Assembly: GCA_017392525.1 (NCBI GenBank) | Contig: JAFOVD010000058.1 | Span: forward strand, 1 to 56,473 | Length of the DNA: 56,473 nucleotides | Direction: 5' to 3' | Source: Lachnospiraceae bacterium | GTDB taxonomy: Bacteria; Bacillota; Clostridia; Lachnospirales; Lachnospiraceae | In this document: positions 23,816 through 46,133 of the stretch, one piece after another | Numbering within the stretch: position 1 is the first letter of the stretch | Layout: every line of letters starts with the position of its first letter | The notes under the pieces: model-generated | Database searches by the model: none | Told to the model about the DNA's origin: nothing | What the model saw: only the letters and a program-made list of their open reading frames with translations | Program-made: the position numbers and the translations under genes

Positions 23816-23820
23816 AAGCG

Positions 23821-23893
23821 AGCGACAGACGGGGCTCGAACCCGCGGTCTCGACCTTGGCAAGGTCGCGCGTTACCAACTACGCCACTGTCGC
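23821..23893 (-). tRNA. tRNA-Gly (GCC)
   Basis: A full cloverleaf: acceptor GCGACAG/CTGTCGC, anticodon stem CGACC/GGTCG with loop TTGCCAA (anticodon GCC), T arm GCGGG-TTCGAGC-CCCGT. CCA is not encoded. Last gene of a three-tRNA operon. Confidence 0.95.
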
Positions 23894-23931
23894 ATATGTC
23901 ATATGATTGCTCTAAGAACTTCCATTGACAG

Positions 23932-24002
23932 AGCGGGTGATGAGAATCGAACTCACGTGTCCAGCTTGGAAGGCTGGCGTTCTACCATTGAACTACACCC
24001 GC
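23932..24002 (-). tRNA. tRNA-Gly (TCC)
   Basis: Acceptor GCGGGTG/CACCCGC, anticodon stem CCAGC/GCTGG with loop CTTCCAA (anticodon TCC), T arm GTGAG-TTCGATT-CTCAT. CCA is not encoded. Confidence 0.95.
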
Positions 24003-24034
24003 ATATTTTGTTGTAATATCTATTCGATATTCAA

Positions 24035-24107
24035 TGCCCAGTTCCGGAATCGAACCAGAGACACGAGGATTTTCTGTCCTCTTCTCTACCAACTGAGCTA
24101 ACTGGGC
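24035..24107 (-). tRNA. tRNA-Phe-like (GAA) with A at position 33
   Basis: Acceptor GCCCAGT/ACTGGGC and T arm TCTGG-TTCGATT-CCGGA are intact. The anticodon stem GAGGA/TCCTC encloses loop CAGAAAA, giving anticodon GAA, but position 33 is A where U is nearly universal. The D stem ends in A, so the G10-C25 pair is also lost. CCA is not encoded. It may be a divergent or defective copy. Confidence 0.75.
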
Positions 24108-24335
24108 ATTTCTGAATTTTATTTATAAACGATTGTTTACAAACTCAACTCACAACAATGGATAGTTTACCTAAAAAGGGTCTTCCTGTCAACAGAATTT
24201 ATTAAGAAATTTTAAAAAATTTATTATCAAATTCTCTTTCTTATTTTTTTATTTGATTTTCTGGGATTTTTGGACATAACCTAATAATATATTTTTCATT
24301 TCTATAAATTCTAAACTCATCTCTAGGAGGTAAAT
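24108..24335. other. Intergenic region between tRNA operon and surface-protein genes
   Basis: No coding frame. On the minus strand TTGAGT with a 17-bp spacer and TAAATA (or 15 bp to TATAAA) is a weak candidate promoter for the tRNA operon. On the plus strand an AGGAGG site precedes the next gene. Confidence 0.5.
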
Positions 24336-24965: not shown

Positions 24966-25001
24966 TTCTACTATTTTCATACTTTAATGAGGAGGTATTC
25001 T

Positions 25002-27074
25002 ATGTCAAAACACCGTGTAACTATTTCTCATCAGGCAATAACCGCTCTACTCTATTTCGCACTTTTTCCACTGGTATTCCTGGCTTGTTTTCTCTGGCAA
25101 TATCGCTTTGTGGAAGCTGCCAATAACTATATTAAAAATAAAGATTTCTATGTATATGGAATCACTAATGATTCTGAAATACACTTTATGACAATTGATG
25201 ACGACCGCGACGCAATTGTCAATGACACAGCCTGGATCGGAGGCGGTGAAATCACCTATGAGTGGACAGATGCCACCTCCATCCTCGTACATATGAAAAA
25301 TGTCAATTGCCACAAATACACCCCATGGATCTATGTCCGCGTTCCGGACACCCAGGGGTATCATTTCACCAGCTCTGAATTCGGCCCATGGACCGGAACC
25401 GGTTGTGCAGGAACAGACGCTCATTATACAGGAGCTGCATATATCATGGATTCCACTGTACAGCAATATATCGGAGCCCAATTCGGTTATTCCTATGTTA
25501 CATTTCACCGTGATCCAAACACCTATTTCATCCATTATGACGGCAATGGATCAACCGCCGGCTCAATGGATCTACAATCCATGCTTTATGACCAACCTGC
25601 TGCCCTCTCCGGATGTAATTACACCAAAAGCATCTCCCTCTCCTTCGATGCAAATGGCGGAGTTGCTATTCCTGATGCTTCTGCAAATGCAGCTTTTCTT
25701 CATTGGAGTCGCGATAACCAATCCTTTGCTCCCGGAACATCCGTCAACAATTTATCCGGTGTAAATGGGGACATCGTCAATTTTCAGGCAAACTGGGGAA
25801 ATGCAACCATCTCCCTCCCAAACACAACCCGGACCGGCTATAAATTAATTGGTTGGTACGATTCTAAGAACCGTTATGTCGGCTCCTACAACACCAACTA
25901 CTCTTATAATACTGACCAGACTCTCTACGCCCAATGGAAACCTATTACCTATACCATTACATATCATGCAAATGGTGTCGGTAATTCATCGCAAGATACT
26001 GTCTCACAGACCTTTACCTATGATTCCACCGGTTATATTCAGAGTTCTGACTTCTCTCAAAATGGATTCATCTTCCAAAATTGGAATACAGCACCTGATG
26101 GCAGTGGTACAAGCTACACTGTCAATCAGCCTATCTTAAATCTATTCCAGAACGAAGGAGAGAACCTGGACCTCTACGCCATGTGGGACACAGATTTTAC
26201 TCTTGACTTAAATGGTAATGGTGGAACGTTGGGCGATGGAAAAACAGATATCTGTATTGAACATGTAAATAACGAAACCACCCTCTCCGAATACGTATTT
26301 ACAATGCAAAGATCTGTCAGTGCTTCCGAACAGGAGCATTATGACAGGAACTCCGATTCCTATGTAGACTACACCTATTACTATAGCCAGCAGGGCTGGT
26401 CTCTTAACAACAGTGATTATTATTATGACGATCGGGTCTACTATGCAGAGGACTCCATCCACAAATATCACCTGAACTCCGCAGATTTTCTGATTAATAC
26501 AATGCACGCCTTCCCGGATTTAGTCAACACAGACGAATCTGGAAATGTTACTGTCACTATGTTTGCAGTCTGGGATGAAGCACCGGTCATTCAGAGTCAA
26601 GACTTCTATATCACCTCAGATACGCTATCCAATATGTCTCAGGATGGCCTTATATCCAGACTCCTTCAAGACACACAGGTGGAGGTAAGTGATCGAGAGG
26701 ACGGAAATGATGTTGACCTGTCTGTATGCCAGCTTGACTGGGACTTTCTAACACATATTGGTGATAATAATGATCCGAACAGTCCAGAGCTTGGTGCTTC
26801 CTCCATTACTTACCGCGCAACAGATATCTGTAACAATGTAACAGAATATAACATCTTAATCATCGTCACCTCTTCCGGCTCTGTACGCTCTACGCAAAAT
26901 GACGGTAGTGTATCACCTCTCTATGCAAGATATATTGATTACAAGGCCTATAACTCCGATACCGACCTGGGCGGAATTGAACCTGATTCCAAATGGAACA
27001 CAGATTCCAATTGCCAAAAAAAACTGATAAACGCTCTTATACGCATAAAAAAATATGGAACCAAGTCCTATTGA
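25002..27074 (+). CDS. Membrane-anchored surface protein with InlB B-type repeats
   Basis: A 690-residue type II membrane protein: a short cytosolic tail, a helix at about 12-32 and a long exterior region rich in Tyr, Asn, Asp, Ser and Thr. Repeats of the Listeria-Bacteroides type are clear (RTGYKLIGWYDSKNR...LYAQW, and NGFIFQNWNTAPDGSGTSY...LYAMW). The C-terminus is basic, with no LPXTG motif. An ATG at 24987 is possible, but GAGGAGG lies within its first codons; the ATG at 25002 is chosen. The stop codon lies inside the terminator hairpin. An adhesin or cell-wall-binding role is inferred. Confidence 0.7.
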   Translation: MSKHRVTISHQAITALLYFALFPLVFLACFLWQYRFVEAANNYIKNKDFYVYGITNDSEIHFMTIDDDRDAIVNDTAWIGGGEITYEWTDATSILVHMKNVNCHKYTPWIYVRVPDTQGYHFTSSEFGPWTGTGCAGTDAHYTGAAYIMDSTVQQYIGAQFGYSYVTFHRDPNTYFIHYDGNGSTAGSMDLQSMLYDQPAALSGCNYTKSISLSFDANGGVAIPDASANAAFLHWSRDNQSFAPGTSVNNLSGVNGDIVNFQANWGNATISLPNTTRTGYKLIGWYDSKNRYVGSYNTNYSYNTDQTLYAQWKPITYTITYHANGVGNSSQDTVSQTFTYDSTGYIQSSDFSQNGFIFQNWNTAPDGSGTSYTVNQPILNLFQNEGENLDLYAMWDTDFTLDLNGNGGTLGDGKTDICIEHVNNETTLSEYVFTMQRSVSASEQEHYDRNSDSYVDYTYYYSQQGWSLNNSDYYYDDRVYYAEDSIHKYHLNSADFLINTMHAFPDLVNTDESGNVTVTMFAVWDEAPVIQSQDFYITSDTLSNMSQDGLISRLLQDTQVEVSDREDGNDVDLSVCQLDWDFLTHIGDNNDPNSPELGASSITYRATDICNNVTEYNILIIVTSSGSVRSTQNDGSVSPLYARYIDYKAYNSDTDLGGIEPDSKWNTDSNCQKKLINALIRIKKYGTKSY

Positions 27075-28150: not shown

Positions 28151-30829
28151 TTATTTTGGCATACGACTTTCATGACAGGTAAAGTATATAATCTGCTTTT
28201 CCTGTCCAAGTTCTTCCATCAATTCCCATGCCATCTCTGTCTTGTCACGATCAAGATTTGTAAACGGATCATCAAGTATTATCATCGGCTGCTCCTTCTG
28301 ATAAAGCGCATCCATAAGCGCCATACGAGAACAGAGTGCCACCAGATCCTGATATCCCGAACTGAGATATCCCTCTTGTCGCGTAATTCCTTTATAAGTA
28401 TATGAAACAGACAAATCAATATCCAGTGAAAAATTACGAACCAGGATTTCTGCATCATCTTCGTTATATAATTTCAACAAATAATGGCGTAATCCATTCT
28501 GAAGCGGAGCCATATAACGTGACAAAAAGTTTTCCTTGGCCTGATGCAGATACTGAAGCGTCTTGTCTAACAGATCAACACGCTTTACGTACTCAGCCTC
28601 TGTTTCCTGCAATCCCTCTAATCTGGATTTCTGATCCTCTAAATTACTGAGTTTCTCAGAAAGCAATGCCAGTTCCTCGCGCTCTTTTGCAATAAACTGA
28701 TTACATTCTGCAATCTTATCATCAACCTCAGTCTGCTTCTCCTGCACTTCTTCAACAGTTTCCATATCCTCACTAAGGTCATGTTCTGACTCAAAAGCAC
28801 GAATACTCTCCTGCAGACTCTCTACTTTCTTCGATAACTCCATATACTGGTTTCGATTTAATAAAACCGTATTAAGTTTATTTTGTAACAAATCTTCCTC
28901 ATCATCAAACTGAAATCCACTTAAAAATTCTCTAAGTTCCATCAGTGTACGATTTGTCTCTTGATGAAGCTTTTCCACCTGCTGCTTATTCAACTTATAC
29001 TCCATATAAGTTCCTGCATGATTTCTCAGGTGCTGAAGCAAGTCCACCTCATTCATATCGTGGTACAAATCCATTTCATAAACTGCAGCATAGCCCGTAA
29101 GTGCCGTGTATAACTGCAATTGCAATGATGACAATTCCTCTAATGTACCGGAAGTATTCTCAATTAACTTCGACTCTTCCGAAAGTAATCTGTCATAAAG
29201 ATCCTTCTTTCGTTGAATTTCCGCTATCATCTGCTGTGTCGAATCATTAGGCGAAACCAGGAAATAACTCAAGAACTCCTTGACTTTGGTCTCAACCAAA
29301 TCACGTTCTCTACTGGTTTCATCCAGTCGAACCTGAGCTGTTGCCAGACGACTGGCACGCTCTCCGCTGGCTTTTCGCTCCAAACTATTCTTTCGAATAG
29401 TTCTTAATATTCCAAATACCATGAGGAGTGCGGCTGCCAGGAAACAGATTGCCGCCACAACAACTGTACGTGGTCCCTCCGTAAATCGTAGAAATGATAC
29501 GCCACCTAACACCAGCACAAGAGTAAGCAACCCGAACATAAGCATTGCTCCACTACTGCTGTGTTCCTCTGAAGCCTCTTCAACAGCCTTTTTCTGAGCC
29601 TCTAGATGCTGGACAGTCTCCTCCAATTCACGAACCTGTCCATCCAAAGTTGCAAGCTGCACTGCATCCGCAGATGCATTTGCAAGCTCATCCAATCCCG
29701 GATTCTTCTTGGCAAAATAGAATTTTAATTCCTGCAGATGATCCTTGTCTTCATCAGACATCTGTGCATGCTCACCCTTGATACGAAGTTCCTTTAATTT
29801 ATCAGCATCTTCCATCCAGCCCGTCATCATCTCATCTGTTGGAACCCCATGTTCGAACAATTTATCGAGAAATGCTACCTCTTCCGTTGTTGGAAGCAAT
29901 TTTGTCTTTTCTTCCAACTCTCTTTGATCTACCTCTAACTGACGTTCTGCAGTAATCATTTCTTGAAGGTACTCTTCTTCCGGTATACCTCTTGCAAAGA
30001 AATCATCCAACTTCTCCAGTTGCTCCTGCGTCTCTTGCATCTGTTTCTTCTGCTCGCGATATGCACCTAGTTCCTGTTCCTTCTTACTCTGCTCTGCAAT
30101 CCTGTCCTGTAGACGTTGTTTCTGCTTCTGCAAATCCAGAAGCGTATCATGTCGTTCTGAAAGAAGCGCACTCTGTTTCTCATATGCATCTGAAAGTGCC
30201 GGTAATTTCTCAATTTCTTCCTTGCACTCACGAATATCCGCCTTGATACGCACCAGCTTACCAACATTTTTCGAACTATTTCTATTATAGTTACGACGAG
30301 CCTCTTCAATCTTGGCTACTGCCGCATCAAAATTATTGATATCATCGCGGGCAGACGCCAGATTACCAAGCTTTGCATTCATTGAATCCGTCATTCCGGT
30401 TTTTAATCCATCCTGCGGTACAAAGATGCTCTTCTCAAATGACACTCGATCCATCTCAAAAAGCTCTTCTCCGATATTTTCCGTGAAATCCTTACTCTCA
30501 AGGCCTGTCTTCACATCATAAAGAGCAAATGTATCATCCTTGTCAGACCGTCCAAAGGTACGCTCAATTCGATAAGTTCCTCTCTCGACTTCAAATGTCA
30601 AACTTCCGCCATAAGTCCCATAATCCCATGGATGATAATGCTCTCGTTCCTGCAACTCCTTGCGGCGAGGATTGTACTCCATTCCATAGAACATGGATTT
30701 AATAAATACAGAGAAAGTTGTCTTTCCCCATCCATTCTTTTCACAGAAGCTGTTTAATCCATCACTAAAATTGAAATGTTCATTCTGGATTCGACCGAAG
30801 CCTGTAATATTACATTCTAGTAATCTCAT
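28151..30829 (-). CDS. YhaN-like SMC/SbcC-type ATPase with central membrane helices
   Basis: An 892-residue AAA_23/AAA_27-type ATPase. The N-terminal half-site has the Walker A GWGKTT within SFCEKNGWGKTTFSVF; the C-terminal half-site has a signature-like LSSGYQDLVALCSRM and Walker B MIILDDPFTNLD. Between them are long coiled coils (about 170-400 and 480-780). Two membrane helices (about 428-445 and 455-478) interrupt them, so the arms may be tethered to the membrane. YhaN and YhaO of Bacillus resemble SbcC/SbcD. Its ATG overlaps the yhaO-like stop by 4 bp (ATGA), typical of a complex. Confidence 0.85.
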   Translation of the reverse strand: MRLLECNITGFGRIQNEHFNFSDGLNSFCEKNGWGKTTFSVFIKSMFYGMEYNPRRKELQEREHYHPWDYGTYGGSLTFEVERGTYRIERTFGRSDKDDTFALYDVKTGLESKDFTENIGEELFEMDRVSFEKSIFVPQDGLKTGMTDSMNAKLGNLASARDDINNFDAAVAKIEEARRNYNRNSSKNVGKLVRIKADIRECKEEIEKLPALSDAYEKQSALLSERHDTLLDLQKQKQRLQDRIAEQSKKEQELGAYREQKKQMQETQEQLEKLDDFFARGIPEEEYLQEMITAERQLEVDQRELEEKTKLLPTTEEVAFLDKLFEHGVPTDEMMTGWMEDADKLKELRIKGEHAQMSDEDKDHLQELKFYFAKKNPGLDELANASADAVQLATLDGQVRELEETVQHLEAQKKAVEEASEEHSSSGAMLMFGLLTLVLVLGGVSFLRFTEGPRTVVVAAICFLAAALLMVFGILRTIRKNSLERKASGERASRLATAQVRLDETSRERDLVETKVKEFLSYFLVSPNDSTQQMIAEIQRKKDLYDRLLSEESKLIENTSGTLEELSSLQLQLYTALTGYAAVYEMDLYHDMNEVDLLQHLRNHAGTYMEYKLNKQQVEKLHQETNRTLMELREFLSGFQFDDEEDLLQNKLNTVLLNRNQYMELSKKVESLQESIRAFESEHDLSEDMETVEEVQEKQTEVDDKIAECNQFIAKEREELALLSEKLSNLEDQKSRLEGLQETEAEYVKRVDLLDKTLQYLHQAKENFLSRYMAPLQNGLRHYLLKLYNEDDAEILVRNFSLDIDLSVSYTYKGITRQEGYLSSGYQDLVALCSRMALMDALYQKEQPMIILDDPFTNLDRDKTEMAWELMEELGQEKQIIYFTCHESRMPK

Positions 30830-31923
30830 TCTTCAATATCCTCCCCCATTATTGCTTTCATTCCAATCTCAATAATCTGAGAGCGTTCTTCCTCCGGCAA
30901 ATCTTCGCCCTGCATCAAACGGACAAACTCTCCTTTAAGAGAGCGGTCATTAACAAAACTCTCATAATGTATTTCCGGGCTTGTCCGATCATAAATTTTG
31001 AAAAAGAAAAATCTATCTTCAAATGTACGCAGTATTCTTGGAATATCCATGTCAAAGTCCATATCCGTATTGCCTTCCAATACTACCTTCACCAGATCTT
31101 TTTCGCTAATCGCTTGAATTGCCTTCTCGATTTCTGCAAGAATCACCGGCATATCCATATCTGTTGTAATTTCAACAGGCACCTCATGCAAACGTCGATA
31201 TGCAAATGGAATAAATTCACTGTCAATCACACTATCATGAATATCCAAAAGAACAAAACCCTTATCTCCGCATTCATCGAACCCACGGCCCTCTAGACAT
31301 CCGCTATAACAATACTCGCCTCGTTCATCAAGGCGTTCATTTTTATAGGAATGAATATGTCCAAGGGCAAGATAATCAATATATTTATTCTTATAATCAT
31401 TTAGATTAATAATCTCTGTTTTATCATTCCCAACATAATCAGACTCCTGACCATGAAGCATAACAATATTGATTTTTGCCTGGTCAAGAATTAGATTTGT
31501 AGCCAACATTTTACTGTTATTTTTGTTTATTTCACGACCTGTAATTACTACCTCGTCATCTTCACCAAAGCTATACGATGTCCACTCTTCTTCAGAAAAT
31601 GTCTTCAGATTCTGCGGAATGTCTCCCTCCAAATCTGCAAGGAAATCCGTCTTGTCATGATTTCCCTTTAGATAGAGAAATGTTATATATGGATGAGATT
31701 CAATAATCTCAAGTGCACGATTTTTAGCCAGCTTACGAATATGGTTCTTATCGAACATATCTCCTGCAATCATAACTGCAGAAACTCCCTGCTGCTCGCC
31801 AAACTCTACCAGACGCTCAAATGTATCCAATAATTCATCGCGTCTCATTTTCGCCTTATCGGCAGTAAGATTGCTCTCTAGCTTTGAGTCTAGATGAAGA
31901 TCAGCACAATGGATGATTTTCAT
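30826..31923 (-). CDS. YhaO-like metallophosphoesterase (SbcD-type nuclease)
   Basis: A 365-residue calcineurin-like phosphoesterase. Metal-binding motifs are in order: CADLHLDS (residues 6-13), AGDMFDKN, LKGNHDK, MLHGQ and LGHIHSYK. This is the DNA repair exonuclease arrangement (SbcD/Mre11). A C-terminal 120-residue capping region follows. It pairs with the downstream YhaN-like ATPase, overlapping it by 4 bp, so the products probably form a nuclease-ATPase complex. The start codon shares one base with the stop of the GTPase-NYN gene. Confidence 0.88.
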   Translation of the reverse strand: MKIIHCADLHLDSKLESNLTADKAKMRRDELLDTFERLVEFGEQQGVSAVMIAGDMFDKNHIRKLAKNRALEIIESHPYITFLYLKGNHDKTDFLADLEGDIPQNLKTFSEEEWTSYSFGEDDEVVITGREINKNNSKMLATNLILDQAKINIVMLHGQESDYVGNDKTEIINLNDYKNKYIDYLALGHIHSYKNERLDERGEYCYSGCLEGRGFDECGDKGFVLLDIHDSVIDSEFIPFAYRRLHEVPVEITTDMDMPVILAEIEKAIQAISEKDLVKVVLEGNTDMDFDMDIPRILRTFEDRFFFFKIYDRTSPEIHYESFVNDRSLKGEFVRLMQGEDLPEEERSQIIEIGMKAIMGEDIEE

Positions 31924-34535
31924 TAATTAACTCCTTTCAGTCCCTCTTCATTCACCCGCTTTATAACACCTTCAAATTCTCTGGAAGATATTCTACGAGC
32001 CCCTTCTCCAACCACAATCATTTGCACTAAGCCATCGGAAGAAACAACAGTGACATCGGCATTTTGTGAATTCGCAATCACATGTGTTGTACGTTCAATA
32101 TATGCGTCTGCCGTCTGTGCTTCCTTGGTATAAACCACGTGGATATTATGATAATCAAATACCTCACCCGGATTTCCCTTGACTTTGTATGCATCAAATA
32201 CAAGTATCAGTTCTACTCCTGTATACCCCTGATAATTGCATAATATATCCATTAATTTTGTACGCGCTGATTCCAGATTACTACGAGATAATTCATCCAA
32301 TTCCTTCCATGCAAATATCACGTTATAGCCATCCACCAACACGTACTTCTTTCGTACTACTGCCTTCTTTTTATCATTTCTGGCAGCAACTCCCGGATGA
32401 TTTTTCAGATACGCTTCTCTTGCCTCTTCCACTTTACTCTGATCTGCAAAAACTTCCGTCTTCGATGCCGGAAGAGGTCGCCTTATTTCACCAAATGTTC
32501 TTGTGAAAATAGCTTCCAGTTCGTCATCCAAACCACTGTATCCATTATAGCTATTTTTCTTACTTTTGGCTATTTTGGAAGATTTCACATTACCTTGTGG
32601 GGAAATAACCTCCACCTGCTCTTCTGAATCATATAATCCAGGTATCGGTTCATCCGGGTTTTCTCGATGCACATAAATGGATTCATATGGATGATACATA
32701 TCCTCTCGGAAATCATAACCAATGCTTTCTATCACTTCCTCAGCATTATGGCAAGGCTTATATCCACTGAGTTCCATACGGATTTCACCCACTCCCCCCG
32801 TATAAGAAGCAACCTCGGATGCATAATCCATCGCACAAACAACCGGGACATCCCCCTCTAATATACAGTGATCCCCGTAAATTTCAGGTGATGACATCGT
32901 TCCATGCATCTTCTCTATATCCATCATTGCTCGTCCCACACTTGCCTGCGGAATCTCTAAAGTAACATGATAATAAGGTTCTAACAAAACACAATCCGTG
33001 CGTAGCAAACCATCCCGGACTGCAATTCCTGTCGCCTTTCTAAAATCTCCACCTTCTGTGTGTTTCTTATGAGACTTTCCATCCACAAGTGTAATCTTCA
33101 CATCAGTAAGAGGCGAAGAAGTTAGCACACCCGCCTGTTCTCTACGTATCAATTGATTCATAACCTGATGCTGATAGTTTTTATTCAAATTATCAATCGG
33201 ACATTCTGTCTCAACTACAATCCCGGAGTTTTCCGGAAGAGGCTCCATTGTGAGAACAACATCTGCAAAATGTTTCAACGGCTCATAATGACCATGCCCC
33301 ATGGTCGGTTCCGAAATCGTCTCCTTATACATAATATTGCCAGTGCCAAAATCGACCTCTTCCTGAAATCTCTTACGCATGCGCTCCTTCAAGACTTCTA
33401 TCTGCACTTTTCCCATCAAGTGTACGTGAATCTCCTGCAGTTTCTCATTCCACTCTATATGAAGCATCGGATCTTCATCTTCTAATTCTCTCAAATCCTC
33501 CAAAATCAAATGTGGATTCTGTTCCGAAGACAATAAAACCTTATATGATAAAACCGGTTCTAACGCAGGCACATCCGAATCCTCTTCTGCACCAAGTCCC
33601 TGTCCCGGATAAGTGTAATCCAGTCCCGTCACCGCACAGAGTTCTCCCGCTTTCACGCATTGCGCCGGTTCATATTTATCACCTTTGTAAATTCGAATCT
33701 CATTGACCTTCTCCGCTTCATCCGGATATGCACCATACGGAAGCACCAAGTCTTTCGCTCTCAATGTACCGCCTGTTACTTTTAGAAATGTTTGCCGTGC
33801 ATGATTTTTGTCTCGGTTGATTTTGTATACTTTTCCACCGAAATCATCACCAAAAACGGGATTATCCACATAATGCTCTAAAGTATCAAGAAATGATTCC
33901 ACTCCTTCCATCTTAAGAGCTGCTCCATACAACACCGGAAAGACATCCCGATTTCGGATTGCCTCTCGAATAATCTCATCCTGAATATCCCCATTCCTGT
34001 CAAACTCTTCTAACAAGGATTCTGAACACATTGCAAGATGCTCTGCCGTTTCATTTCCATGAACGTCAGAAAAATCCACGCAGTTATCACAGAGTTTATC
34101 CATGATATCTGCCTGAATTTCTTCCTTTGACATATGGGATATGTCCATCTTATTTACAAATATAAATGTTGGGATTTCATAACGTTTTAGAAGTTTCCAA
34201 AGCGTTCTCGTATGTGACTGCACACCGTCAAGTCCACTGATTACAAGAATTGCATAATCTAAAACCGGAAGGGTACGTTCCATCTCAGCTGAGAAATCGA
34301 CATGTCCAGGAGTGTCGACAAATGTGATTTCCAAATCCTTATATGACAAACTTGCCATCTTCGATAGAACCGTGATTCCACGTTCTCTTTCTATATCATC
34401 TGTATCCAGAAAAGTGTCCCGATGATCAACGCGTCCAAGCGAACGTATCTCACCCGCAAGATACAGCATGCTCTCTGATAAAGTTGTCTTTCCTGCATCC
34501 ACATGTGCCAGGATGCCTGCTACGATTTTTTTCAT
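31923..34535 (-). CDS. Tet(M)/EF-G-like translational GTPase fused to a NYN (YacP/Rae1-like) nuclease domain
   Basis: An 870-residue fusion. Residues 1-640 resemble ribosome-protection GTPases: G1 AHVDAGKTT (10-18), RGIT switch (52-55), DTPGH (74-78), NKMD (128-131), then EF-G-like domains II-V. The Tet(M) tip loop SPVS is replaced by GKSHKKHTEGGDFR, so tetracycline resistance is not assumed. After a linker (about 640-728), residues 729-870 form a NYN domain with the acidic residues of the fold visible: VDGYN, VFDAYK, TADAYIE and SSDGL. Rae1/YacP cuts mRNA in the ribosomal A site. No clear ribosome site precedes the ATG. It heads the operon with yhaO, yhaN and HD-GYP. Confidence 0.88.
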   Translation of the reverse strand: MKKIVAGILAHVDAGKTTLSESMLYLAGEIRSLGRVDHRDTFLDTDDIERERGITVLSKMASLSYKDLEITFVDTPGHVDFSAEMERTLPVLDYAILVISGLDGVQSHTRTLWKLLKRYEIPTFIFVNKMDISHMSKEEIQADIMDKLCDNCVDFSDVHGNETAEHLAMCSESLLEEFDRNGDIQDEIIREAIRNRDVFPVLYGAALKMEGVESFLDTLEHYVDNPVFGDDFGGKVYKINRDKNHARQTFLKVTGGTLRAKDLVLPYGAYPDEAEKVNEIRIYKGDKYEPAQCVKAGELCAVTGLDYTYPGQGLGAEEDSDVPALEPVLSYKVLLSSEQNPHLILEDLRELEDEDPMLHIEWNEKLQEIHVHLMGKVQIEVLKERMRKRFQEEVDFGTGNIMYKETISEPTMGHGHYEPLKHFADVVLTMEPLPENSGIVVETECPIDNLNKNYQHQVMNQLIRREQAGVLTSSPLTDVKITLVDGKSHKKHTEGGDFRKATGIAVRDGLLRTDCVLLEPYYHVTLEIPQASVGRAMMDIEKMHGTMSSPEIYGDHCILEGDVPVVCAMDYASEVASYTGGVGEIRMELSGYKPCHNAEEVIESIGYDFREDMYHPYESIYVHRENPDEPIPGLYDSEEQVEVISPQGNVKSSKIAKSKKNSYNGYSGLDDELEAIFTRTFGEIRRPLPASKTEVFADQSKVEEAREAYLKNHPGVAARNDKKKAVVRKKYVLVDGYNVIFAWKELDELSRSNLESARTKLMDILCNYQGYTGVELILVFDAYKVKGNPGEVFDYHNIHVVYTKEAQTADAYIERTTHVIANSQNADVTVVSSDGLVQMIVVGEGARRISSREFEGVIKRVNEEGLKGVN

Positions 34536-34680
34536 GAAGTTATTATAACATAATAACCCTATTCCTCTATATTACCTATGTCATTTTCATATATCCACAT
34601 ATCCTGATTGAATTTTTCAAATTTTATAAGTTTATTCTCTCGTAATTCTCGTTCTGCAATAGAAATCCACTTTTTCCTGT

Positions 34681-34761
34681 TCAATCTGATGCAAAATCTT
34701 CACACAAATTATATAAAGTTTTTCTCTGAAACTCTTCGTCATCGCATATTGCAATTTTCAT
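34681..34761 (-). pseudogene. N-terminal remnant of a LytTR/AgrA-type response regulator
   Basis: An ATG at 34761 opens MKIAICDDEEFQRKTLYNLC, the classic start of a response-regulator receiver domain with its acidic pair, but stops after 26 codons. No phosphoacceptor or DNA-binding part follows. It is probably debris from a lost signalling locus. Confidence 0.55.
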
Positions 34762-34833
34762 AGTTCTGTCCTCACATCATAGTCTTAAAGCATATTTTAA
34801 AAAATTTGAACTATTTGTCAACCTTTCAGACAA

Positions 34834-35005
34834 CAAAAAAACAGCCCGCACCCCTGCGAGCTGTCCAACCGTAAAAACCCTCCGCGTTCTCCTAAAAAGA
34901 CATTGCGTCTGTCAGATCTAGTCGTCGAAATCCCCCTCACCATGAAGATCTGCAATTAGCCATCACCACAATGATTTCGATCACGGATAGGATCCTATTT
35001 AATGA
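34834..35005 (-). ncRNA. Probable structured non-coding RNA, unidentified
   Basis: About 170 nt of unusually GC-rich sequence within an AT-rich gap, with no reading frame. On the minus strand it ends in a strong terminator (ACAGCTCGCA/TGCGGGCTGT, 34841-34864, then seven Ts). Upstream pairings include UCCGUG with CGCGGA as a closing helix, CAGAUCU with AGAUCUG, and GACA with UGUC, giving a rod-like fold with a large internal loop. TTGAAT-15 bp-TATCAT upstream is a possible promoter. It matches no riboswitch I recognise; a 6S-like RNA is one possibility. The ends are approximate. Confidence 0.55.
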
Positions 35006-35067
35006 TATCACTTTCCAAAAATATTCAAATATGACGATATAGACGATTTTCGGCTCCGAAAATTGTG

Positions 35068-35119
35068 TAAAAACACAATAATCAGAGCCGATACATGTAA
35101 TTTATTAATAATTAGGAGG
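35068..35119 (+). promoter_or_regulatory. Sigma-D-like promoter and ribosome site without a gene
   Basis: TAAA (35068-35071), exactly 15 bp, then GCCGATAC (35087-35094) matches the flagellar sigma-D consensus. AGGAGG follows at 35114-35119, but no start codon or plus-strand gene does; the 3' end of glgP lies there in the opposite direction. Confidence 0.4.
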
Positions 35120-35128
35120 TTATTTTAT

Positions 35129-37396
35129 TTAGCGTAAGTGCCACACTTCATCATTATACTGAGCAATGGTTCGATCAGATGAGAAGAATCCTGCCTTTGC
35201 TATATTTACAAGACATTTCTTTTCCCAAGCCTTACGATCTTCATAATCAGCGTAAACCTTATCCTTTGTCTCAATATAATCTTTAAGATCTAATAATGTC
35301 ATAAACCAATCTTTAGAGATAAGTTCATGATGTAATCTTTCCAGATTTTCCTTATTTCCAAGCTTTGTAATCTCTGGTCCAACAATGAAATCAACCAGTT
35401 TCTTAATTAACTTATCTTTCTTATAAAAGTCCTTAGCGCAGTATCCACTCTTTGCATAGAGATCAATTACGGTGTCAGATTTCTCACCAAAGATATAGAT
35501 ATTTTCATCTCCAACAAGATCTCGAATCTCGACATTTGCACCATCTTCTGTTCCAAGTGTCACTGCACCATTCAACATAAACTTCATATTTCCAGTTCCG
35601 GATGCTTCTTTTGATGCAAGAGAAATCTGCTCTGAAATATCTGCTGCCGGAATAATCTTTGCTGCATAACTTACATTGTAGTTCTCAGCCATTACTACAC
35701 GGAAATATGGCGCTACATCCGGATCATTTGCTGTGAGTTCCTGCAAGCACAGGATTAAGTGAATGATATCCTTTGCAATTACATAAGCAGGAGCAGCCTT
35801 TGCACCGAAAATCATTGTAATTGGACGAGCAGGCTTCTTACCGCCTTTGATTTCCAGATATTTATAGATTGCATATAAGCAGTTCATCTGCTGACGCTTA
35901 TATTCATGAAGTCTCTTAACCTGTACATCATAGATTGATTCCGGATCAATTGTAACTCCCTGCTTTTTCTTGAAGTACTCTGCCAACACAACCTTGTTCT
36001 CATGTTTGATCTCATCCAATTTCTGAAGTACCGCATCATCATCTGCATATGCAAGGAATTTCTCTAATTCATTTGCATCCTTTTTGTATCCTTCACCAAT
36101 CTTCGATGTAATAAAATCTGCAAGTGTTGGATTACAGTGAAGTAACCATCTGCGGAATGTTATACCATTTGTCTTATTGTTAAACTTCTCAGGATATAAC
36201 TTGTAGAAATTATTTAACTCTGAATCTTTCAAAATCTCTGTATGAAGGGCTGCAACACCATTGATAGAATATCCATAATGAATATCCATATGTGCCATAT
36301 GCACAGCATTATTCTCATCAATGATATATGTACTCTTATCAGAAACCTTTGCACGGATTCTATTATCTAATTCACGGATAATCGGAAGCAGATGAGGTAC
36401 CACTTCTTCCATATAATCCATTGGCCATGTTTCAAGTGCTTCTGCAAGAATCGTATGATTTGTATATGCACATGTCTTCTCTGTCACCTTAATTGCTTCA
36501 TCCATTGTAAATCCTTCTAACTGAAGAAGACGGATTAATTCCGGAATAACCATCGATGGATGTGTATCATTAATCTGGATTGTGACATGCTTATCCAATT
36601 CATGTAAATCATATCCCTTAGCTTTTGTTTCCATGAGAATTAACTGTGCCGCATTGCTAACCATAAAGTACTGCTGATAGATACGAAGAAGTCTTCCGTC
36701 TCGATCAGAATCATCCGGATACAAGAAGAGTGTCAGGTTCTTCTCTACTGCAGTCTTATCAAAATCGATGCTATCTCCCTGCACCATATTGTCATCTACA
36801 GAATCTAAATCAAAAAGATGCAACTTATTCACAGTTCCTGTTTCATAACCCGGAACATCAATATCATACATTGTAGAATGTACTGTCATCTTTCTAAATG
36901 GAACTGTAAAATCAACCGGTACTTTATTTAACCAGCTCTCTGTCGTAAGCCAAGGATTCTTTACTTCCTTCTGTAAATTTTTCTCAAACTTCTGCTGGAA
37001 AAGTCCATAATGGTAATTTAATCCAACACCATCACCCTGTAATTCCAAACTTGCAATTGAATCAAGGAAACAAGCCGCCAAACGACCAAGTCCACCATTT
37101 CCAAGAGATGGTTCTAATTCCATTTCCTCAATATCTGCAAGGTCAACATCATGTTTCTTAAGTGCTTCTTTCACATCATCATATAAACCCAAGTTAATCA
37201 GGTTGTTGCTAAGAAGCTTACCAATTAAAAACTCTGCAGAAATATAGTAGAGTTTCTTATCTCCCTTTACAGGCTTCTTGTCAGCCATTTCCTTTTTTGT
37301 AAGCAGAAGCAATGCATGATAAATTTCTTCTGAAGTTGCTTTATCAAACCCGTGTTTAAATGTGTCCTTCAAAATCGCTTCAATTCTTTTTTCCAT
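35129..37396 (-). CDS. glgP: Glycogen/maltodextrin phosphorylase
   Basis: A 755-residue GT35 enzyme that releases glucose-1-phosphate from alpha-1,4-glucans. The pyridoxal-phosphate lysine lies in [11 protein letters not shown] near residue 600, followed by [17 protein letters not shown]. The N-terminal active-site segment [16 protein letters not shown] is present. The length is typical of clostridial phosphorylases, shorter than animal forms. It is the last gene of malQ-lacI-glgP, 37 bp after the regulator gene. GGAAAAGGAA precedes the ATG. Between its stop and the RNA at 35.0 kb, no T-rich terminator is seen. Confidence 0.95.
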
Positions 37397-46001: not shown

Positions 46002-46019
46002 AATTTGAATCTGTAGCAC

Positions 46020-46101
46020 TGGGTGGTGGTGGATTCGAACCACCGAAGCAATTTGCAGCAGATTTACAGTCTGTCCCCTTTGGCCACTCGGGAAACCACC
46101 C
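46020..46101 (-). tRNA. tRNA-Tyr (GTA)
   Basis: A class II tRNA of 82 nt: acceptor GGGTGGT/ACCACCC, anticodon stem CAGA/TCTG with loop CTGTAAA (anticodon GTA), a long variable arm (TGCAAATTGCTTC) and T arm GGTGG-TTCGAAT-CCACC. CCA is not encoded. Confidence 0.95.
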
Positions 46102-46133
46102 ATTTGTTTTAAATTTTCAAAACAACCTTGTTT

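What the first reader, a model, noticed from the sequence alone, without database searches (positions are those of the whole stretch)
31923..34535. Ribosome-type GTPase fused to a NYN/Rae1-like RNase
Seen: an intact EF-G/Tet(M)-type GTPase (AHVDAGKTT, DTPGH, NKMD) continues into a C-terminal NYN domain with all four acidic positions (VDGYN, VFDAYK, TADAYIE, SSDGL). Known: Rae1/YacP is a NYN enzyme that cuts mRNA in the ribosomal A site, and ribosome-protection GTPases enter the same site. Inference: one protein could use GTP to place an RNase on stalled or drug-bound ribosomes. The Tet(M) SPVS loop is absent, so an automatic label of tetracycline resistance would probably be wrong.
Basis: partly seen in the sequence, partly recalled or inferred. 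Interest (0 to 1): 0.78.

Follow-up and report, generated by a model that had tools for sequence, protein, structure and literature searches.

The report
Ribosome GTPase with built-in mRNA cutter
Many gut Clostridia carry one long protein that joins a ribosome-binding type of GTPase to a relative of the mRNA-cutting enzyme Rae1, apparently in place of a separate Rae1 gene; relatives are labelled tetracycline resistance, but it looks more like a housekeeping factor for stalled ribosomes, which has not been tested here.

Summary
Window 31923-34535 (-) is one intact 870-aa ORF: EF-G-type domains I-V (5-597), a variable tether, and a YacP/Rae1-type NYN domain (732-864) with all four acidic residues. 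The fusion is already in print, in two sentences of Atkinson 2015.

New here:
- It is common, judged by frame length: 111 of 140 genera sampled in the own family, 127 of 391 genomes of the class.
- It stands in for free Rae1. No rae1 lies beside sigH in 14 of 14 fusion-only genomes checked; one of the 127 also has a free copy.
- The acidic residues are invariant in 53 of 53 aligned fusions.
- The GTPase is no Tet(M): it sits in its own clade with NYN-less relatives and has another, nearly invariant domain-IV tip, KHTEGGDF for SPVSTPADF.
- Domain IV is its most conserved part. Rae1's C-terminal motif is mostly lost once fused.

Best reading: a housekeeping Rae1 brought to stalled ribosomes by its own EF-G-like carrier. 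Replacement of Rae1 is well supported; GTP-coupled delivery is inference.

The parts
31923..34535 (-). whole ORF, 870 aa: EF-G-type GTPase - tether - NYN (Rae1-like) fusion
33867..34523 (-). GTP-binding domain (residues 5-223), G1 AHVDAGKTT, G3 DTPGH, G4 NKMD
   Evidence: G15, K16, T17, T18 of G1, D74-H78 of G3 and N128, K129, D131 of G4 in 41 of 41 fusions
33609..33842 (-). EF-G domain II (232-309)
   Evidence: 22.6 bits, below the Pfam cut-off of 27; fold match spans 1-606
33345..33560 (-). EF-G domain III (326-397)
33000..33338 (-). EF-G domain IV (400-512), the part expected to enter the A site; the most conserved region of the protein
   Evidence: mean column entropy 0.86 bits (0.97 without the two search-pattern stretches) against 1.32 for G+II and 1.15 for the NYN core in 41 fusions picked through NYN
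33039..33080 (-). domain IV tip loop GKSHKKHTEGGDFR (486-499), where Tet(M/O/S) have SPVSTPADFR
   Evidence: H492, T493, G495, G496, D497, F498 in 41 of 41 fusions and 16 of 16 GTPase-only relatives
32745..32990 (-). EF-G domain V (516-597)
32616..32753 (-). C-terminal tail (595-640) shared with GTPase-only relatives (CHN..EEVI..IGY then SVFC.HG...YMH); in the window the second half (SVFC, YMH) is lost
32349..32615 (-). variable hydrophilic tether (641-729)
   Evidence: mean entropy 2.91 bits; tether 74-142 aa, median 84, in the 40 of 53 rows where a pattern could delimit it; low pLDDT
32490..32531 (-). short conserved helical motif LDDELEAIFTRTFG (669-682) inside the tether
   Evidence: I676 invariant in 53 of 53
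31944..32342 (-). NYN_YacP (Rae1-like) RNase domain (732-864)
   Evidence: B. subtilis YacP 5mq8/5mq9, E 5e-23, 50 of 128 aligned columns identical
32331..32333 (-). acidic residue D735
   Evidence: 41 of 41, 53 of 53
32193..32195 (-). acidic residue D781
   Evidence: 41 of 41, 53 of 53
32106..32108 (-). acidic residue D810
   Evidence: 41 of 41, 53 of 53
32034..32036 (-). acidic residue D834
   Evidence: 41 of 41, 53 of 53

Best explanation
This is the Rae1 of its lineage, fused to its own ribosome-binding carrier. Shown: a Rae1-type NYN with intact acidic residues sits on an EF-G-type GTPase; the fusion genomes examined have lost free rae1 from beside sigH, with one exception that has both. 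Inferred: the GTPase, in its GTP form, binds ribosomes with a vacant or stalled A site through its conserved domain IV tip; the tether of about 85 residues lets the NYN domain cut the mRNA in the A site, either after GTP hydrolysis withdraws domain IV or on a neighbouring (collided) ribosome. The cut would end translation of that mRNA and open the A site for rescue (tmRNA). It is a chromosomal housekeeping factor, not a tetracycline resistance gene.
Against: Rae1 works without any such fusion in B. subtilis, and 93 of 391 class genomes have NYN with no GTPase ortholog by the E < 1e-85 cut. GTPase-only relatives occur in 5 genomes without NYN, so the GTPase has a role of its own. 132 of 391 genomes have neither. 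Domain IV and Rae1 are both expected in the A site and cannot fill it together. The window's own copy is derived: it lacks the SVFC/YMH tail and the Rae1 C-terminal helix, and R166P near that end behaves as a loss-of-function allele of B. subtilis Rae1 (placing R166 in the motif is my inference). The link between fusion and motif loss rests on 1-2 independent contrasts, and the motif count depends on the pattern used (30 of 111 by a looser one). One fusion, L088, has a fast-evolving NYN. No conserved gene neighbour. No biochemistry.
Confidence: 0.55

Rival explanations
1. Two independent activities on one chain: NYN is Rae1 and the GTPase does its own job (translocation-type rescue or splitting); fusion only fixes dosage or co-localisation, with no GTP-coupled delivery.
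For: GTPase-only relatives live in genomes with a separate NYN (14 of 19) and without any (5 of 19); Rae1 needs no fused GTPase in B. subtilis; the tether is long and variable.
Against: Replacement of the free gene and drift of the Rae1 C-terminal motif after fusion suggest that the NYN came to rely on its carrier.
Confidence: 0.25
2. Tetracycline (or other A-site drug) resistance protein with an added RNase, as proposed in PMC4342817.
For: Nearest solved relatives by sequence are Tet(O)/Tet(M), 265 and 246 bits; a GTPase-only relative on a Ligilactobacillus plasmid is annotated TetM/TetW/TetO/TetS family.
Against: Clade apart, 100/100 against Tet 100/99; SPVS loop replaced; NCBIfam resistance cut-off missed; 111 of 140 sampled genera of the family carry it, while only 2 of 1214 matching plasmid records cover 80% of the query, one of them a 518-kb Monoglobus replicon with the full fusion; no known leader RNA found upstream.
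Confidence: 0.08
3. The NYN domain acts on rRNA or tRNA (maturation, or decay of faulty ribosomes) and the GTPase brings it to particles.
For: NYN/YacP was proposed to mature rRNA and tRNA (Anantharaman and Aravind 2006, as cited in PMC4342817); free rae1 lies beside the rRNA methylase gene rlmB.
Against: Characterised Rae1 cuts mRNA in the A site.
Confidence: 0.08

Closest known systems
Clostridial Tet-NYN fusions, Atkinson 2015 (PMC4342817)
   Same: Same architecture in ten clostridial species, noted in two sentences with a suggested RNase-based resistance.
   Different: In the passages read, that paper classes them as Tet and gives no account of Rae1 replacement, own clade or domain-IV tip; its supplements were not seen.
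Rae1/YacP of Bacillus subtilis (PDB 5mq8, 5mq9)
   Same: NYN_YacP domain, same acidic motifs, 50 of 128 aligned columns identical.
   Different: A free protein; the window copy is fused, not beside rlmB, and lacks the C-terminal helix.
Tet(M)/Tet(O) ribosome protection proteins
   Same: EF-G-type domains I-V, about 30% identity.
   Different: No SPVS loop, different C-terminal tail, separate clade, fused RNase.
EF-G
   Same: Fold over residues 1-606; histidine at the domain-IV tip position.
   Different: Tail, tip loop KHTEGGDF, and NYN; the own genome has a separate EF-G-like gene of 705 aa.
   Same: Same clade where tested, same tip loop and CHN...SVFC...YMH tail.
   Different: End after the tail; no NYN.

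Membership tests
Tet(M/O)-type tetracycline resistance proteins | EF-G-like domains I-V | tested here: met
Tet(M/O)-type tetracycline resistance proteins | domain IV loop SPVSTPADF | tested here: not met
   window KHTEGGDF; Tet(M), (O), (S) SPVSTPADF and TetB(P) SPASTPADF
Tet(M/O)-type tetracycline resistance proteins | score over NCBIfam NF012153 cut-off | tested here: not met
   423 bits against 775
Tet(M/O)-type tetracycline resistance proteins | groups with Tet proteins in a tree | tested here: not met
   6 Tet rows on one side (100/99), 56 fusion and GTPase-only rows on another (100/100)
Tet(M/O)-type tetracycline resistance proteins | confers tetracycline resistance | not testable with these tools
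   needs MIC
Rae1/YacP | NYN_YacP domain over cut-off | tested here: met
   155.9 bits against 24.6
Rae1/YacP | four acidic residues and N of VDGYN | tested here: met
Rae1/YacP | free-standing gene beside rlmB and sigH | tested here: not met
   own genome: cysS-mrnC-rlmB-sigH, no rae1
Rae1/YacP | C-terminal helix with LExxR | tested here: not met
   window ends 56 residues after the TAD-IE motif, free copies 81-86; 21 of 21 free copies have the motif
Rae1/YacP | groups with canonical Rae1 in a tree | tested here: inconclusive
   16 canonical free copies form a clade (99/98); fused NYNs and 6 free ones of the own family lie outside it; one fusion origin not rejected (p-AU 0.51)
Rae1/YacP | ribosome-dependent mRNA cleavage | not testable with these tools
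   needs assay
Published Tet-like GTPase-NYN fusion (Atkinson 2015) | both domains in one clostridial ORF | tested here: met
   clostridial by the titles of the nearest named loci

The most novel reading that the evidence does not exclude
A one-protein, GTP-driven ribosome-rescue endonuclease: a translational GTPase with a built-in mRNA-cutting domain, a core factor of gut Clostridia that replaced free Rae1 and handed ribosome recognition from the Rae1 C-terminus to an EF-G-like domain IV.
Probability: 0.4. Interest if true: 0.82.

Novelty: new member of a known kind. Interest (0 to 1): 0.57.

Why it matters
What draws Rae1 to a paused ribosome is, to my knowledge, unsettled. Nature appears to have joined it to a GTPase that should bind the same site and then let Rae1's own C-terminal motif go, which gives a direct, testable guess at what recruits it. 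It also means that a widespread gene of gut Clostridia may be misread as tetracycline resistance where annotation goes by nearest named relative.

Tried and rejected
Operon logic: the pair downstream (MRE11/YhaO-like and YhaN-like) recurs with the fusion only in L090 among the 39 other fusion loci and in none of the 80 loci (many cut short), so it says little about function. The neighbour scan (120 loci) found no shared partner; a gene that I read as a tRNA-dihydrouridine synthase directly follows in 5.

Defence system: PADLOC gave 0 families. Tet-type attenuator: Rfam on 34300-35400 gave one hit at E 0.52, taken as chance; promoter-like sites there are no more than in shuffles.

Split of an ancestral fusion in free-NYN genomes of the own family: not decided. 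Six such NYNs form a clade (99/93) among unresolved fused ones; one fusion origin is not rejected. Motif loss after fusion: only 1-2 independent pairs, so no test is possible.

Conservation of domain IV: the rows had been fetched with two patterns inside domain IV, so I repeated the count on rows picked through NYN, and without the pattern stretches; the order held.

Literature: passages of PMC4342817. Searches showed no second paper on the fusion among the rows listed; some searches listed 15 of 43, 12 of 91 and 10 of 853. Leroy 2017, Condon 2018 (Rae1 distribution, the likeliest to mention it), Deves 2023 and Gilet 2025 are not held; I saw only their titles in reference lists. PMC11780869, PMC10100781 and PMC8161019: passages seen, not used for a claim.

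Rows dropped: of 80 named loci, L206 and L223 (frame breaks, NYN in another frame), L274 (frame break), L216 (contig end), L270 (contig edge, NYN seen by tblastn), and L246, L256, L257 (no NYN found in the locus); of 64 full-length fusions 52 went into A2, mostly to leave out long N-terminal extensions. 20 of 166 class orthologs had unclear frames. 7 of 126 NYN genomes of the family had frames of 194-735 aa. The long NYN rows L087, L088, L089 were left out, and the fragment L146. In one search G243 and G447, which have no clear sigH, were not examined.

The model search did not list a Rae1 structure; the GTPase fills the list, so this is no evidence.
Full report
Observation. The ORF at 31923-34535 on the minus strand is intact, 870 aa. 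It holds EF-G domains I-V and a C-terminal NYN_YacP domain. Domain II alone scores under its Pfam cut-off, but the fold match spans residues 1-606. The best solved sequence relatives are Tet(O) and Tet(M), 265 and 246 bits; the NYN part alone matches only two B. subtilis YacP (Rae1) structures at E up to 1. NCBIfam's resistance model is missed by a wide margin, 423 against 775 bits.

Already in print. Atkinson 2015 (PMC4342817, passages) says that Tet proteins from ten clostridial species have gained a YacP-like NYN domain and may have an RNase-based resistance. Searches showed no other paper on it among the rows listed (three of them were capped lists); the 2018 paper on Rae1 distribution is not held and may mention it.

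Distribution. With PF05991, 249 of 391 class genomes have a NYN match. With the GTPase part, 166 of 391 have an ortholog at E < 1e-85, a cut that I set at a gap in the scores; 127 have an open frame of 780 aa or more and all 127 have a NYN match in the genome, 19 have a GTPase-only gene of about 645-730 aa, and 20 are unclear. In the own family, sampled one per genus, 126 of 140 have NYN: 111 in fusion-length frames, 8 free, 7 with broken or cut frames. Fourteen genomes of the family lack NYN and none of the 14 has the GTPase ortholog. Outside the class but in the phylum, by my count 12 of 289 genomes have a fusion-length frame; NYN was not checked there. Genomes of these searches are unnamed; the best 80 of at least 595 named hits are mostly titled Lachnospiraceae, Oscillospiraceae or other Clostridia.

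Replacement of free Rae1. I checked sigH loci of 23 genomes and read 21 of them. In five free-NYN genomes rae1 sits beside sigH, in four of them seen between rlmB and sigH; in a sixth, G413, NYN lies 1.7 kb away. In 14 fusion-only genomes no rae1 was found there; 12 show rlmB near sigH, and two (G193, G152) have sigH without rlmB in the fetched stretch. The own genome reads cysS-mrnC-rlmB-sigH. G330 has the fusion and also rae1 in the operon, a possible intermediate. Of the five class genomes with two NYN hits, three second hits are under the cut-off, one genome has two fusions, and one is G330.

Two building blocks. The GTPase tree puts fusions and GTPase-only proteins in one clade (100/100), apart from six Tet rows (100/99) and three EF-G rows (100/100); the 14 GTPase-only proteins of the class form their own clade (100/99), and a Ligilactobacillus one sits near the base of the fusions with weaker support. 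In the NYN tree the 16 canonical Rae1 form a clade (99/98). One fusion origin is not rejected (p-AU 0.51). Among 31 hand-picked free-NYN genomes, 15 also have a GTPase-only ortholog (6 of 9 in the own family, 9 of 22 elsewhere). But 5 of 19 GTPase-only genes of the class sample are in genomes without NYN. So the parts can occur apart.

Signs of function. The four acidic residues are invariant in 41 of 41 fusions picked through NYN and in 53 of 53 picked through domain IV-V and then kept for having NYN. In three of the 80 loci found through domain IV-V no NYN was found, one of them Bifidobacterium commune. dN/dS of the NYN part is 0.06-0.13 in the five pairs with dS under 1; more distant pairs are saturated. 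Domain IV is the most conserved region: mean column entropy 0.78 bits against 1.13 for the NYN core and 1.34 for domains G and II in A2. A2 was fetched with two patterns inside domain IV; in the set picked through NYN the values are 0.86, 1.15 and 1.32, and 0.97 for domain IV without the pattern stretches. The tether is the least conserved (2.91). The tip loop KHTEGGDF is nearly invariant in fusions and GTPase-only proteins and differs from the Tet loop; the position of EF-G's tip histidine (recalled as His583) is H in 39 of 41 fusions and 15 of 16 GTPase-only proteins, Y or F in the Tet proteins.

What fusion changed. Free copies end in a conserved LExxR motif, 21 of 21. Of 111 fusions 21 keep it, 33 end early (the window among them), 56 are long without it, and one was not classified; a looser pattern gives 30 of 111. 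In B. subtilis a R166P change near that end behaved as loss of function (PMC6613710, passages). The natural reading is that the GTPase took over recruitment, but fusion arose only once or twice on the tree, so this is not statistical proof.

Mechanism. Shown: architecture, conservation, replacement. Established for Rae1 elsewhere: A-site mRNA cutting. Inferred: delivery by the GTPase, with a hand-over or action on a neighbouring ribosome because the A site cannot hold both.

Limits. The window genome is 79% complete. Its copy is derived: it lacks the SVFC/YMH half of the tail and the Rae1 C-terminal helix, so another member would be better for experiments. Presence and absence counts use open-frame length as a stand-in for fusion.

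Noticed in passing
28151-31923 (-): MRE11/SbcD-like phosphoesterase (30826-31923) and AAA ATPase (28151-30829), a YhaO-YhaN-like pair (names recalled), start at the fusion's stop; the arrangement recurs in L090.
   Followed up: partly
34681-34761 (-): A 26-codon ORF MKIAICDDEEFQRK... in the 593-base gap before the fusion looks like the leftover start of a response regulator gene (recognised by eye).
   Followed up: no
L072, L094, L095, L102, L106: A gene that I read as a tRNA-dihydrouridine synthase follows the fusion within 26 bases in 5 of 120 loci.
   Followed up: no
L163 (Ligilactobacillus salivarius plasmid), L256 (Bifidobacterium commune): NYN-less members of the same GTPase group outside Clostridia; L163 is annotated as TetM/TetW/TetO/TetS resistance though its tip loop is VHTVGGDF.
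   Followed up: partly
residues 595-640 of relatives (A2); window 32616-32753: Conserved tail with C595, a second Cys (SVFC) and a final His (YMH) might bind a metal or dock on the ribosome; degenerate in the window.
   Followed up: no
window 32490-32531 (-): Short conserved motif D-EL--IF-RT(Y/F)G inside the otherwise variable tether, predicted helical; could be a ribosome-binding peptide.
   Followed up: no
G330 (L103, L104): One genome with both the fusion and free rae1 in the rlmB-sigH operon.
   Followed up: yes
24987-27074 (+): Protein with Listeria-Bacteroides repeats (Flg_new), perhaps a surface protein.
   Followed up: no
23820-24108 (-) and 46019-46102 (-): tRNA-Gly, tRNA-Gly, tRNA-Phe cluster and a tRNA-Tyr.
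   Followed up: no
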